Of a stretch of DNA of 64,000 nt, positions 38,643 to 42,773 are shown one piece after another (the stretch's first letter is position 1; the number at the start of each line of letters is the position of its first letter). The translations under genes were made by a program, and so were the position numbers. The notes beneath the pieces were generated by a model. The model saw only the letters and a program-made list of their open reading frames with translations, was not told where the DNA came from and searched no databases. This stretch comes from Brucella haematophila (GTDB taxonomy: Bacteria; Pseudomonadota; Alphaproteobacteria; Rhizobiales; Rhizobiaceae), in NCBI RefSeq assembly GCF_005938105.1, contig NZ_VCPE01000004.1, forward strand, positions 310,001 through 374,000. The letters run 5' to 3'.

Positions 38643-40073
38643 ATGTCTGCTGATACGACGGAAAAGAAGGTTACGCGTGCGCCGCGTCGCCGTACGCCTG
38701 CCTATGTCAAATCCCTGCGTGGGGTGAAGAACTGGAAGCAGGCAACCGAATGGCTAGCCTGGCGGGATATCGAAGACATCGAATGCATCACCCCCGATCA
38801 AGCGGGGGTTGCGCGCGGCAAAATGATGCCGTCCAAAAAATTCACGTCCAACACATCGCTGGCACTGCCATCCGCTGTCTTCATGACGACGATTTCCGGC
38901 GACTATCCGGAAGACGGCTACGGCTTCCATTATCCGGAAGACGATGGCGATCTGAGACTTTTGCCCGACCTTTCCACTCTGTCGGCTGTTCCTTGGGAAA
39001 GCGACCCGACGGCGCAGGTGATCTGCGATCTGGTCTATCAGGACGGACGCGCTGTTGAATTCACGCCGCGCAATGTGCTGCGCAATGTCGTTGCTGCTTA
39101 CAACAAGCGTGGCCTGAAGCCGGTCGTAGCGCCGGAAATCGAATTCTATCTGGTGCGCAAGAACCCCGACCCGGATTATCCGCTGACCCCGCCGGTTGGC
39201 CGTTCGGGCCGCGCCATCGGCGGCGGACAGGGCTATTCGATTGCGGGCGTCAACGAGTTCGATGAACTCATCGATGACATCTACCATTTCTCCGAAGGTC
39301 AGGGTCTGGAGATCGACACGCTGATCCACGAAGAAGGCGCCGGTCAGCTGGAAATCAACCTGCGCCATGGCGATCCTGTCGAATTGGCCGATCAGGTTTT
39401 CCTGTTCAAGCGCACGATCCGCGAGGCGGCGCTCAAACATGACATGTATGCCACCTTCATGGCCAAGCCCATTCAGGGCCAGCCGGGTTCGGCGATGCAT
39501 ATCCACCAGTCGATCATCGACAAGAAGACGGGCCGCAACATTTTCACCAATGAGGATGGCAGCGAGAGCGAGGCCTTCCGCCACTTCATCGGCGGCATGC
39601 AGCGCCATGTGCCGAATGCTCTGGTAATGTTTGCGCCCTATGTGAATTCCTATCGTCGCCTGACGCCGGATGCCTCCGCGCCCGTCAACGTCAAATGGGG
39701 CTACGACAACCGCACCACCGCCTTCCGCGTGCCACGCTCCGACCCCAATGCGCGCCGCGTGGAAAACCGCATCCCCTCCTCCGACGCCAATCCCTATCTG
39801 GCGCTGGCGGCTTCGCTTGCCTGCGGTCTGATCGGCCTCGTCAACAAGATTGACGCGGAACAGCCCGCCACCACCAGCGTCAACACCAAGGAAGTCGAAC
39901 TGCCGCGCGGCCTGATCGATGCCGTGGAATTGTTCGAAAGGGACGACGAACTGCGCAACCTGATCGGCAGTTCCTTCGTCACGACCTATGCCGCCATCAA
40001 GCGCGCCGAGTTCGAAACCTTCATGGAAGTCATCAGCCCGTGGGAACGCGAGTTCCTGTTGCTCAATGTGTAG
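38643..40073 (+). CDS. puuA: glutamine synthetase family protein, gamma-glutamylputrescine synthetase-like
   Basis: ATP-dependent ligase of 476 aa. Glutamine synthetase catalytic blocks are present: PEIEFYLV, EEGAGQLEINL, GSAMHIHQS and the RVENRIPSSDANPY glutamate-binding region. Clearly not housekeeping GlnA: it has a basic N-terminal extension and lacks the adenylylation loop context. Association with a FAD oxidase of PuuB type 470 bases downstream and the pot operon nearby makes gamma-glutamylation of putrescine likely; other amines are possible. The operon is interrupted by the S23-like gene. Confidence 0.82.
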   Translation: MSADTTEKKVTRAPRRRTPAYVKSLRGVKNWKQATEWLAWRDIEDIECITPDQAGVARGKMMPSKKFTSNTSLALPSAVFMTTISGDYPEDGYGFHYPEDDGDLRLLPDLSTLSAVPWESDPTAQVICDLVYQDGRAVEFTPRNVLRNVVAAYNKRGLKPVVAPEIEFYLVRKNPDPDYPLTPPVGRSGRAIGGGQGYSIAGVNEFDELIDDIYHFSEGQGLEIDTLIHEEGAGQLEINLRHGDPVELADQVFLFKRTIREAALKHDMYATFMAKPIQGQPGSAMHIHQSIIDKKTGRNIFTNEDGSESEAFRHFIGGMQRHVPNALVMFAPYVNSYRRLTPDASAPVNVKWGYDNRTTAFRVPRSDPNARRVENRIPSSDANPYLALAASLACGLIGLVNKIDAEQPATTSVNTKEVELPRGLIDAVELFERDDELRNLIGSSFVTTYAAIKRAEFETFMEVISPWEREFLLLNV

Positions 40074-40112
40074 GTTAGGGGAGTAGGGCAGTAGGGGAGT
40101 AGGAAATATGCG
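40074..40112. repeat. left GGGAGTA repeat flank of the S23-like gene
   Basis: Directly after the puuA stop: GGGGAGTA-GGGCAGTA-GGGGAGTA-GG, an 8-base unit repeated three times, then AAATATG. Its complement recurs at 40487-40521 on the other side of the S23-like gene. Confidence 0.9.
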
Positions 40113-40123
40113 GGGGCATATAT

Positions 40124-40486
40124 ATGACAATCAATTCGTATCGCGATATTCTTGCATGGCAGCAAGCAATGGAGCTGGTAACGGCAGTCTATAAATCTAC
40201 GGAGATATGGCCGAAAGAAGAGATCTATGGACTGACAAGTCAGGTGCGTCGCGCTGCAGTATCAGTTCCGGCGAATATAGCGGAAGGTTACGGGCGGGAT
40301 ACACGTGGCGCCTATCAGCAGTTTTTGCGTATCGCGCAAGGTTCGTTGAAAGAAGTGGAAACCCACATACTGATTGCTGAAAGATTGGGCTTTATCAAAC
40401 AGGATACTATCGACCCGATAATGGCGAAGAGTGAGAGTGTCGGAAAACTGCTTAGACTTCTCATTCGCAAGCTATCGGACGGCTAA
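40124..40486 (+). CDS. four-helix bundle protein, S23/IVP family
   Basis: A 120-aa protein of the 23S rRNA intervening-sequence (S23/IVP) family, four antiparallel helices that assemble to a pentamer and probably bind nucleic acid. Family signatures: LAWQQAMELVTAVYK, LTSQVRRAAVSVPANIAEGYGR and LRIAQGSLKEVETHI. In many genomes such genes sit inside rRNA or as solitary insertions; related Avd proteins serve retroelements. Here it lies between puuA- and puuB-like genes, both flanks carrying inverted GGGAGTA-type repeats, so it looks like an inserted unit. The stop TAA abuts the right repeat. Confidence 0.93.
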   Translation: MTINSYRDILAWQQAMELVTAVYKSTEIWPKEEIYGLTSQVRRAAVSVPANIAEGYGRDTRGAYQQFLRIAQGSLKEVETHILIAERLGFIKQDTIDPIMAKSESVGKLLRLLIRKLSDG

Positions 40487-40521
40487 CATACTCCCCTACT
40501 CCCTTATTCCCTTACTCCCTT
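40487..40521. repeat. right TACTCCC repeat flank of the S23-like gene
   Basis: CATACTCCCC-TACTCCCT-TATTCCCT-TACTCCCT: four units of 8 bases, inverted relative to the left flank. They begin at the base after the S23 stop codon. Confidence 0.9.
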
Positions 40522-40540
40522 AAAGCACGCGGAATCGCCG

Positions 40541-41827
40541 ATGCCCTACCAGTCCCCAATCTCCCCCGGCCTTTCATGGTACGAAGCGAGTGTGCCGGAG
40601 CGGCCTGAATATCCAGAGCTTGACGGTTCGCGGCAGGCCGATGTCGTCATCATCGGCGGCGGCTATACGGGACTATCCGCAGCCTACCATCTGGCGAAAC
40701 AGGGCGCGGATGTGGTTCTGATCGAGGCCGAGCGCTTCGGCGACGGCGCATCGGGGCGCAATGGCGGCCAGTTCGGCACCGGCCAGCGCACATGGGCGGA
40801 AGACCTCGAAGCCGAATATGGCTATGAGCGCGCCAAGGCCCTGTTCGACGTTGCTGAAGAGGCGAAAGCCTATCTGCTGGCCTTCGCGAGCGAGCACCAG
40901 ATCGACATGGACTATGTGCCCGGGCAAATCTCCGTCGTGCACAAGCCGCGCTATCTCAAGCAATATGAGCGCCACGCGGAGCTGATGCAGAGCCGCTTCA
41001 ACTATCCGCATTTGCGTTTTATCGGGCGCGATGAAACGGCGGCCTTGCTGGGGTCCAGCCGCTATCATGGCGGCGTCTACGATGCCGGAACCGGCCACAT
41101 ACACCCGCTGAAGCTGCTCATCGGCACCGCCAAGGCGGCAAAAGCGGCGGGCGCGAAGCTCTATGAGAATACCAAGGCAACCGGGATCAACACGGCCAGC
41201 GGGCGCGTGGAAGTCGCGACGACACGCGGCACGATTGTCGCGAAAAACGCCTTCATCGCCGTCAATGCCTATGGTGGCACGCTGGAGCCGATCAGCGCAT
41301 CGCATGTCATGCCGATCCGCTCTTTTATCGGCGCGACGGTGCCGCTTGGCGATGACAGCCCGGTCATACCGGGTGGCGAGTCGATCGACGATTCCCGCTT
41401 TGTGGTCCGCTATTTCCGCCGCTCAAAAGATGGACGGCTGTTGTTTGGCGGTCGCGAAGCCTATACGGCAGATAATCCGCGTGAGATCAGCACGCATATC
41501 CGTCGCCAGATCGCGGAAATCTATCCCGCGCTTGGCAATGTCGAGATTACCCATGCCTGGGGCGGTTCGGTCGGCATAACCATGCCGCGCCAGCCTTTTG
41601 TCCGTGAAGTGATGCCGGGCGTCATTTCGGCAGGCGGTTTTTCCGGCCATGGCGTGATGCTGGCGAATTTCATGGGTAAGCTTTATGCGGACAGCATTTC
41701 CGGCAAGCGCGAGAAGCTCAAACTGTTTGAAGAACTGCGCATTCCATCTTTCCCCGGCGGGCGTACATTCCGCGCGCCGCTCCTCTTCCTCGCGCTGTCA
41801 TGGTACGCGCTGATGGATCGCGTATAG
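40541..41827 (+). CDS. puuB: FAD-dependent oxidoreductase, gamma-glutamylputrescine oxidase-like
   Basis: DAO-family flavoenzyme of 428 aa. The N-terminal FAD-binding dinucleotide motif VVIIGGGYTGLSAAYHLA is at about 30-47, the motif FGDGASGRNGGQFGTGQ follows, and the C-terminal FAD-contact AGGFSGHGVMLANFMGK closes the fold. PuuB oxidises gamma-glutamylputrescine to the aldehyde; this role is inferred from similarity and the neighbouring synthetase. The start has only a weak GGA upstream, and the S23 insertion may have displaced the original leader. Confidence 0.85.
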   Translation: MPYQSPISPGLSWYEASVPERPEYPELDGSRQADVVIIGGGYTGLSAAYHLAKQGADVVLIEAERFGDGASGRNGGQFGTGQRTWAEDLEAEYGYERAKALFDVAEEAKAYLLAFASEHQIDMDYVPGQISVVHKPRYLKQYERHAELMQSRFNYPHLRFIGRDETAALLGSSRYHGGVYDAGTGHIHPLKLLIGTAKAAKAAGAKLYENTKATGINTASGRVEVATTRGTIVAKNAFIAVNAYGGTLEPISASHVMPIRSFIGATVPLGDDSPVIPGGESIDDSRFVVRYFRRSKDGRLLFGGREAYTADNPREISTHIRRQIAEIYPALGNVEITHAWGGSVGITMPRQPFVREVMPGVISAGGFSGHGVMLANFMGKLYADSISGKREKLKLFEELRIPSFPGGRTFRAPLLFLALSWYALMDRV

Positions 41828-41892: not shown

Positions 41893-41955
41893 TAAGAGCA
41901 CATCCCGAAAAGTGTAAAACGGTTTTCGGGAAAGATGTGCGTTAAAGCGCTCTAA
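41893..41955. repeat. palindromic repeat, family C
   Basis: About 63 bases: TAAGAGCACATC, an inner hairpin CCCGAAAA...TTTTCGGG, GATGTGC, and TTAAAGCGCTCTAA. The outer parts GCACATC/GATGTGC also pair. The right end read on the minus strand, TTAGAGCGC, contains the TAG stop of the Hint-domain gene and shares TTAGAGCG with family A. Confidence 0.9.
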
Positions 41956-42773
41956 GCCGCGCGCTCCCCGGCCCTCAAAGCCAGACGCTGATAGGTTTCT
42001 TCCACCACATCACGCATCGGCAACATGCCGCTGAGACACAACAATGCGCGCATATGTTCGCGTCCGCCCTCATAGCCCATGATCGGCGCGAAGGGCTGCA
42101 TCACGATGTTTGGCTCGTCTGCGTAGAGCTGCTGATACTCGGCAAAATTCATGAAGCTCTTATAGCTGTCGCCACGCAGCAGATAGGTTTCAACCGCAGC
42201 CCCTTCGGCGAATATCGCTTCATGGCTGTCGAGCATAACATTGTAGTAATCGATGGATTGATCCATCGCCACGCGGTTAATGGAACGTCCGTTGACGAGA
42301 TCCTTGGCGCGGATCAAAACGCCGTCGATGAAAAGCGCATGATTGGGCGAAAGATAAAGATCGCGACGCGGTGTCATGCGATCCAGCGCGTGGCTGGCGA
42401 TGCGGATCGGCATCACGTCTTCGCCCCATTCTGCGCCGCCCTTTCTGTAGCGTTGCCAGCCGACCCATTTGACCGGCACGACCTTGCAATCAGCGGTCAC
42501 GACAAGGTCGCCAACGGCGAGGTTTTCCACGGCAACCGGTCCGCTCATGGTTTCAACCAGCGTCCCTTTCAGCAGGCAGTTGGTGCCGCCGCCATCACCG
42601 CCACTGCCTCCATCCTCCCACCATTTGGCCCCCAAGGCACGGGCTGGCGTCGTGAGAGATGACGCCAGAGCGCCAATCGCGGCCGCCCTTGCGGCGGCAG
42701 CTCCCGCCACGCCCAAAAAATGGCGTCGCGCTCGGTTGCGTGGTGAATGCCTGTTTTGTTGTTCTGTCGACAT
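41952..42773 (-). CDS. Tat-exported Hint-domain protein
   Basis: A 273-aa protein with a twin-arginine signal (ARRHFLGVAG, Arg16-Arg17) followed by an Ala-rich region, a Gly-rich linker (54-64), and a Hint (Hedgehog/intein) domain from Cys66: CLLKGTLVET, VENLAVGDLVVTADC, LYLSPNHALFIDG with His145, then VETYL. The C-terminal His-Asn of true inteins is not seen, so peptide-bond cleavage at Cys66 or a non-splicing role is more likely than splicing. Bacterial Hint_2 proteins of this type occur in exported contexts; function unknown. ATG 42773 codes MSTEQQNRHS. Stop supplied by the family C repeat. Confidence 0.82.
   Translation of the reverse strand: MSTEQQNRHSPRNRARRHFLGVAGAAAARAAAIGALASSLTTPARALGAKWWEDGGSGGDGGGTNCLLKGTLVETMSGPVAVENLAVGDLVVTADCKVVPVKWVGWQRYRKGGAEWGEDVMPIRIASHALDRMTPRRDLYLSPNHALFIDGVLIRAKDLVNGRSINRVAMDQSIDYYNVMLDSHEAIFAEGAAVETYLLRGDSYKSFMNFAEYQQLYADEPNIVMQPFAPIMGYEGGREHMRALLCLSGMLPMRDVVEETYQRLALRAGERAA

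What the first reader, a model, noticed from the sequence alone, without database searches (positions are those of the whole stretch)
40074..40521. S23/IVP four-helix gene bracketed by inverted GGGAGTA repeats inside a polyamine operon
The repeat runs start directly after the puuA stop and directly after the S23 stop, in opposite orientation (three and four 8-base units). The unit separates puuA- and puuB-like genes that are expected to be adjacent. S23 proteins were first known from intervening sequences in 23S rRNA, where the insert also forms a stem from complementary ends. This looks like the same kind of RNA-stem insert in an mRNA, that is a possible IVS-type mobile element outside rRNA.
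Basis: partly seen in the sequence, partly recalled or inferred. Interest (0 to 1): 0.8.

Follow-up and report, generated by a model that had tools for sequence, protein, structure and literature searches.

The report
Gene riding in a repeat hairpin
A small bacterial gene of unknown role sits inside a giant predicted hairpin whose two arms are runs of a 7-8 letter repeat; the same design recurs in many bacterial phyla and inside ribosomal RNA, and in the bacterial family studied the genomes that carry the gene usually hold many small gene-less copies of the hairpin, so gene and hairpins look like two halves of an unrecognised family of mobile elements.

Summary
In detail: a PF05635 (S23/IVP) gene lies between puuA- and puuB-like genes, bracketed by inverted arrays of an 8-nt unit predicted to form a 28-bp stem. 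It is not local. Of 287 full-length S23 genes sampled from many phyla, 197 have matched inverted arrays, against 2 of 1082 control positions; period 7 in 134, 8 in 56. S23 inside a 23S rRNA gene has them too. Units differ between elements but agree within one; the 5' arm is G-rich on the gene's strand in 189 of 197. S23 copies 86-94% identical occur in unrelated flanks. The same arrays occur as S23-less hairpins abutting gene 3' ends (one 67-nt loop at six sites of one genome). They track S23: at least 20 array matches in 48 of 93 S23+ and 9 of 204 S23- genomes of the family; S23+ mean higher in 26 of 29 mixed genera. The S23 model resembles Avd, accessory protein of diversity-generating retroelements. 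Best reading: S23 is the gene-bearing helper of a family of array-armed hairpins, as RAYT is to REPINs; rRNA IVSs are one branch. That S23 causes the spread is inferred, not shown; a test for RNA-level pairing (G-U excess) was negative overall.

The parts
40076..40103 (+). 5' arm: 3.5 copies of an 8-nt unit (TAGGGGAG), G-rich strand reading into the S23 gene
40124..40486 (+). S23 / 23S_rRNA_IVP four-helix-bundle gene, 120 aa; dN/dS about 0.07 in the genus
40489..40522 (+). 3' arm: 4.2 copies of the inverted unit (TACTCCCT), C-rich on the + strand
40074..40523 (.). whole element: predicted hairpin with the S23 ORF in the loop, 28-bp array stem
38643..40073 (+). host gene upstream, glutamine-synthetase family (PuuA-like)
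40541..41827 (+). host gene downstream, FAD-dependent oxidoreductase (PuuB-like)

Best explanation
The insert is the gene-bearing member of a widespread family of hairpin elements whose arms are inverted tandem arrays of a 7- or 8-nt unit. SHOWN: the arms match each other within an element while units differ between elements; the G-rich strand reads into the gene; array-bearing S23 genes lie mostly in sense between co-directional genes, abutting the upstream gene's end; closely similar copies sit in unrelated flanks; S23-less hairpins of the same build are dispersed, and one is multicopy; in this bacterial family their abundance and period track S23. INFERRED: S23, an Avd-like four-helix protein, acts in trans on the array hairpins and promotes their spread or upkeep, as RAYTs are thought to do for REPINs. 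Likely route, least certain: the transcript folds, RNase III cuts the array stem as in rRNA IVSs, S23 binds the freed or nascent hairpin, and a DNA copy made in trans (reverse transcriptase or template switching) enters at another gene 3' end. Arrays that hold stop codons in several frames would make insertion there harmless.
Against: Correlation is not cause, and the counts ignore kinship except in the within-genus comparison. The patterns were drawn from S23 arms of this family, and the S23 element's own arms add to the counts. 15 S23- genomes have >=10 matches and 7 S23+ have none; G028 of the genus has 97 matches and no S23. On the tree S23 lineages are mostly site-faithful (11 changes among 7 named sites). 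G-U 222 vs A-C 191 (p 0.14): no general sign of RNA-level pairing, and one group goes the other way, 9 vs 25. 90 of 287 S23 genes lack arms by the threshold. Tracking was tested in one bacterial family only. No reverse transcriptase link was tested.
Confidence: 0.62

Rival explanations
1. Array hairpins are functional 3'-end structures (terminator-like or mRNA-stabilising), and S23 is the protein that binds or processes them; S23 sits in one such hairpin for self-control. Movement is incidental.
For: S23-less hairpins abut gene ends: of 39 read, 17 convergent, 16 tandem, 0 divergent, 6 uncallable; distance to the adjacent stop median -3 nt over 50 stops. One convergent-gene site carries array hairpins with differing units in many genomes, and some S23- genomes have a plain hairpin there. 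S23 has dN/dS 0.07 and an Avd-like fold.
Against: One loop at six unrelated sites of one genome and S23 copies in unrelated flanks show movement; loop and 3' arm at one site differ between close relatives.
Confidence: 0.22
2. The arrays spread by replication slippage and template switching alone; S23 is a passenger ORF that survives in the loop of a hairpin.
For: Tandem units of variable number, loop and arm exchange at one site; inverted copying of a gene end in L473, L474, L476. The authors of the Coxiella IVS study hold that the IVS RNA matters more than S23p there (PMC4990558 passages).
Against: S23 is under strong purifying selection in the genus, and array abundance tracks S23 within 26 of 29 genera.
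Confidence: 0.1
3. An ordinary operon gene with simple-sequence repeats by chance or as a local regulatory stem.
For: Same site in 13 of 13 S23+ genomes of the genus; coding-style conservation; S23 lineages mostly keep their site.
Against: Matched arms at 197/287 S23 genes versus 2/1082 controls; empty sites in 17 of 30 junctions read; array-bearing S23 at 56 neighbour pairs.
Confidence: 0.03

Closest known systems
23S rRNA intervening sequences (IVS) with an S23/IVP ORF
   Same: Same protein family; ORF in the loop of a long terminal-repeat stem. Coxiella's IVS has a 28-bp stem and tandem heptamers just before the S23 ORF (PMC4990558 passages). L317/L318 here are IVSs with period-7 arms.
   Different: The window element is in an mRNA operon gap; nearly all members found here are outside rRNA; such arrays also exist as S23-less hairpins.
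REPIN / RAYT
   Same: Short non-autonomous hairpins dispersed outside genes, plus a single-copy helper gene with the same repeats beside it (PMC3116915 passages).
   Different: The helper is an Avd-like four-helix protein, not a tyrosine transposase; arms are tandem 7-8-nt arrays; the gene lies inside the hairpin.
Heptamer arrays of Xanthomonas and Nostoc (GGGAATC, GGGGA(C/T)T)
   Same: Intergenic 7-nt arrays; 70 and 75 pairs in convergent orientation in two Xanthomonas genomes; nearer the next 5' ORF than the next downstream one (PMC4692102 passages). X. campestris, one of the two, carries an S23 protein, XCC0516 (2gsc).
   Different: That paper's main text has no hit for S23 or four helix; whether those arrays flank XCC0516 was not tested here.
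Avd of diversity-generating retroelements
   Different: About 10% identity; not reached by sequence profile; no search for a partner reverse transcriptase or template/variable repeat was made.
TAACTGA direct repeats of Beggiatoaceae
   Same: 7-nt intergenic arrays in several phyla (PMC4679880 passages).
   Different: 169 direct sets and one indirect repeat in the genome described; no S23 hit in the main text.

Membership tests
PF05635 / TIGR02436 (S23, IVP) | profile score over curated cut-off | tested here: met
   125 vs 33.8 bits; 121.7 vs 24 bits
PF05635 / TIGR02436 (S23, IVP) | four-helix bundle like 2gsc and 2rld | tested here: met
rRNA intervening sequence (IVS) | located inside a 16S/23S rRNA gene | tested here: not met
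   between two protein genes; no Rfam match at gathering score in L001, the window's S23 locus
rRNA intervening sequence (IVS) | long terminal inverted-repeat stem around the ORF | tested here: met
   (predicted)
rRNA intervening sequence (IVS) | excised by RNase III without ligation | not testable with these tools
   needs RNA data
REPIN/RAYT | helper is a REP-associated tyrosine transposase | tested here: not met
   S23 matches only PF05635 in Pfam at E 0.001
REPIN/RAYT | dispersed non-autonomous hairpins with the helper's flanking repeats | tested here: met
   period agrees in 42, disagrees in 2; at unit level agreement is mixed, e.g. G093 differs
DGR accessory protein Avd | fold | tested here: met
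DGR accessory protein Avd | partner reverse transcriptase and template/variable repeat | not tested
   the two neighbours are metabolic genes; no genome-wide search was made
Classical transposon | target-site duplication | tested here: inconclusive
   none seen at puuA-puuB; one site only, and arrays blur the ends

The most novel reading that the evidence does not exclude
Bacteria carry an unrecognised, near phylum-wide class of mobile hairpins with arms of tandem 7-8-nt units, driven not by a transposase but by the Avd-like S23 protein through an RNA or single-stranded intermediate aimed at gene 3' ends. rRNA IVSs, the Xanthomonas/Nostoc heptamer arrays and possibly the cyanobacterial short tandem repeats (recalled) are branches of it, and S23, an orphan family named after the rRNA IVSs, is its mobility factor.
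Probability: 0.35. Interest if true: 0.95.

Novelty: new variant of a known kind. Interest (0 to 1): 0.86.

Why it matters
PF05635 proteins have no known function, and heptamer arrays, rRNA IVSs and DGR accessory proteins have been studied apart. The link found here makes the function of S23 directly testable: does it bind, move or maintain array hairpins? If it does, a retroelement-type four-helix helper, not a transposase, drives a widespread class of small bacterial repeats, with gene 3' ends as landing sites.

Tried and rejected
Longest-ORF gene calls put genus loci in the wrong orientation because of shadow ORFs; replaced by amino-acid-composition calls, which leave 66 of 287 uncalled. 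G-U versus A-C test for RNA-level pairing: negative overall. A profile search of PDB sequences lists 2gsc and 2rld but no Avd chain among 13 rows; the fold comparison does list Avd. Looking for a Xanthomonas genome to see whether GGGAATC arrays flank XCC0516: the best of 56 matches in a 350-genome sample was 57% identical, so no such genome was recognised. Searches that found no paper linking S23 with such arrays in general: (listings; open-licence PMC only). Seven papers were opened, passages only; the nearest is the heptamer note in PMC4990558. The cyanobacterial short tandem repeats (STRR) are recalled, not read.

Rows dropped: 33 of 320 S23 ORFs before the count of 287 (short, cut, identical or lacking a flank); 2 of 167 early loci in which my S23 profile found nothing, L062 and L063; 37 of 197 array-bearing elements without callable neighbours; 19 of 154 similar pairs whose flanks were too short to judge; 47 of 78 S23 pairs too diverged for dN/dS; 3 of 30 loci without scorable flanks. 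Genus-wide sites were read in 30 of 35 genomes, and L470 did not align at the site.

Full report
OBSERVATION. The window holds an S23/IVP gene at 40124-40486 between a PuuA-like and a PuuB-like gene. Inverted arrays of an 8-nt unit flank it at 40076-40103 and 40489-40522. The five pattern matches of the window all lie here, against 0.06 expected. The transcript is predicted to close the ORF in a stem of 28 array base pairs, z -4.98.

THE SAME SITE IN RELATIVES. PF05635 is in 13 of 35 genomes of the genus and 93 of 297 sampled from the family; the search's 14 control genomes have none. Of 30 puuA-puuB junctions read (of 35), 13 are filled and 17 empty with 10-22 nt between the genes. Gene trees of puuA and puuB need 4 and 5 changes of S23 presence; one empty genome (L300) is the supported sister of a filled one (L293). 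In the clade of ten that holds them, the first 60 nt of puuB are 97% alike among S23+ alleles, where farther windows average 86-91%, and 81-84% alike between S23+ and empty alleles; over all 13 S23+ alleles only the first 30 nt stand out (94%, then 81%). The last 30 nt of puuA are 98% alike among the three empty alleles of the clade but 80% among S23+ ones, in part because L295 is shifted by a base. The junction therefore seems to travel with the insert, by recombination or co-conversion. The S23 ORF is coding: dN/dS median 0.07 over the 31 of 78 pairs (13 genes) that could be computed.

HOW GENERAL. Among 287 full-length distinct genes with both flanks, 197 have upstream and downstream flanks that match as inverted repeats with score >=14; control positions in the same loci give 2 of 1082 and swapped partners 48 of 857. 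By sample: genus 13/13, family 81/95, order 13/20, phylum 20/44, mixed phyla 45/83, viral contigs 21/28, plasmids 4/4. The best period is 7 in 134, 8 in 56 and another in 7, while shuffled arms spread over 4-12. A later gammaproteobacterial sample gives 19 of 27 scorable loci; two of its 30 loci come from genomes seen before (G610, G645), and neither is among the 19. Record titles of the mixed scan with clear arms include Bacteroidota, Planctomycetales, Desulfobulbaceae, Clostridia and a Staskawiczbacteria (Patescibacteria) genome, and a Nostoc plasmid has them. In 189 of 197 the sense 5' arm has more G than C, in 4 fewer, in 4 as many. In 96 of 171 arms of 21 nt or more the G-rich strand has stop codons in all three frames, against 8% of shuffles; on the C-rich strand 6 of 171.

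RIBOSOMAL COPIES. L317 and L318, two loci of one genome with identical flanks, have S23 inside a 23S rRNA gene, on its strand, with period-7 inverted arms (Rfam run on L317, full-length match). Published work on the Coxiella IVS reports a 28-bp terminal stem, tandem heptamers before the S23 ORF that vary in number between strains, and RNase III cleavage within the stem (PMC4990558, passages). IVSs and operon S23 genes thus share one architecture.

SITES AND ORIENTATION. Of 221 loci with callable neighbours, 193 have S23 in sense between two co-directional genes, 14 antisense, 10 convergent, 4 divergent; 66 of 287 were not callable; array-bearing ones alone: 140, 10, 8, 2 and 37. In the 140, the upstream gene ends a median of 2 nt before the outer edge of the arm, within 20 nt in 128. 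Neighbour pairs: 86 over the 221, 56 over the 160 with arrays. Recurrent ones, named by me from their sequences: nuoC-nuoD 54, puuA-puuB 32, an ATP-grasp/alpha-E pair 23, sdhA-sdhB 8, gmd-fcl 6, cysD-cysN 4 (only the window's genes were checked by profile). On a tree of 221 S23 proteins the seven named sites change 11 times: residence is long, moves are rare.

ARMS AND GENE BELONG TOGETHER. Within one site lineage, own arms match better than arms swapped between genomes: medians 19.5 vs 8 (nuoC-nuoD), 23 vs 17 (puuA-puuB), 23 vs 8 (ATP-grasp site). For pairs at different sites, arm similarity >=0.6 rises from 0.1% of 2813 pairs below 40% S23 identity to 57% of 49 pairs at 70% or more.

MOVEMENT. 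Of 154 S23 pairs at least 75% identical in DNA, 120 have a related flank, 15 have unrelated flanks on both sides and 19 could not be judged. Ten of the 15 pairs are among five copies, three of one metagenome-assembled genome and two of other genomes, 86-94% identical.

S23-LESS HAIRPINS. The window's genome has 139 array pattern matches, its S23 arms included. In 39 hairpins read from several genomes the arrays come as convergent pairs with short loops, median 47 nt. One 67-nt loop stands at six sites of G003 with unrelated 500-nt flanks and 4-12 units per arm; five copies are 97-98.5% alike and the sixth (L402) is identical to L400. Four such hairpins fold with z -4.3 to -7.5. Of the 39, 17 lie between convergent genes, 16 between tandem ones, none between divergent ones, and 6 were not callable; arrays abut the adjacent stop, median -3 nt over 50 stops (an ORF may stop within the array). 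At one convergent-gene site read in 30 of 35 genus genomes (L470 did not align) the hairpin is present with different units and loops, degenerate, plain or absent; close relatives share the 5' arm but differ in loop and 3' arm.

S23 TRACKS THE ARRAYS. In the genus, 13 S23+ genomes have 72-139 matches and 22 S23- genomes 0-97, of which 21 have at most 21. In 297 family genomes, >=10 matches occur in 63 of 93 S23+ and 15 of 204 S23-, >=20 in 48 of 93 and 9 of 204; medians 21 and 0; 7 S23+ genomes have none. Among 29 genera with both states the S23+ mean is higher in 26, lower in 2, tied in 1. Where the S23 arms of a genome have one period only, genome-wide arrays agree in 42 (34 period 7, 8 period 8), disagree in 2, are mixed in 9 and too few in 6. 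Limits: the totals ignore kinship; patterns came from arms of this family, so arrays of other units in S23- genomes go uncounted; S23 arms themselves count, in the period comparison too; overlapping matches of one array count separately. At unit level agreement is mixed: the first-listed arrays of G093 are mostly another 7-mer than its S23 arm.

MECHANISM. Best supported: S23 acts in trans on array hairpins and drives or maintains them. Shown are unit, movement and correlation; inferred are binding, causation and the intermediate. An RNA intermediate is suggested by sense orientation in transcripts, by the rRNA copies and by Avd kinship. It is not supported by base-pair evidence: G-U 222, A-C 191 overall, 35 vs 7 in the genus, 82 vs 58 in the family, but 9 vs 25 in the phylum sample.

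NOVELTY. Pieces are known (IVS with S23 and, in Coxiella, heptamers; Xanthomonas/Nostoc heptamers; REPIN-RAYT logic; Avd fold). I found no paper that joins them (open-licence library only). I rate it a new variant of a known kind, helper plus dispersed hairpins, with a helper of an unrelated family.

Noticed in passing
L214, L233, L235, L256, L280: These S23 copies carry extra homology beyond the arrays: about 125 nt upstream and a closing hairpin downstream, after which the flanks diverge.
   Followed up: partly
Viral-contig loci L168-L202: Of 16 callable S23 genes on viral contigs 11 lie antisense to both neighbours; elsewhere sense prevails. Some of these contigs are close relatives of each other.
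   Followed up: no
L473, L474, L476 (site of L397): S23- genomes have a plain hairpin whose left arm looks like an inverted copy of the neighbouring gene's 3' end.
   Followed up: no
L295, puuA end: The last codons of the puuA-like gene are shifted by one base beside the insert.
   Followed up: no
G028 (same genus): 97 array matches but no PF05635 hit; a lost S23 or an assembly gap would explain it.
   Followed up: no
L284 (Nostoc edaphicum plasmid): S23 with period-7 arms lies antisense between the two ribonucleotide reductase genes.
   Followed up: no
window 41952-42773 (-): ORF that looks by eye like a Hint-type domain protein with a twin-arginine-like start; not searched.
   Followed up: no
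recurrent S23 sites: S23 often separates genes for subunits of one complex (nuoC/nuoD, sdhA/sdhB, cysD/cysN; names by eye).
   Followed up: no
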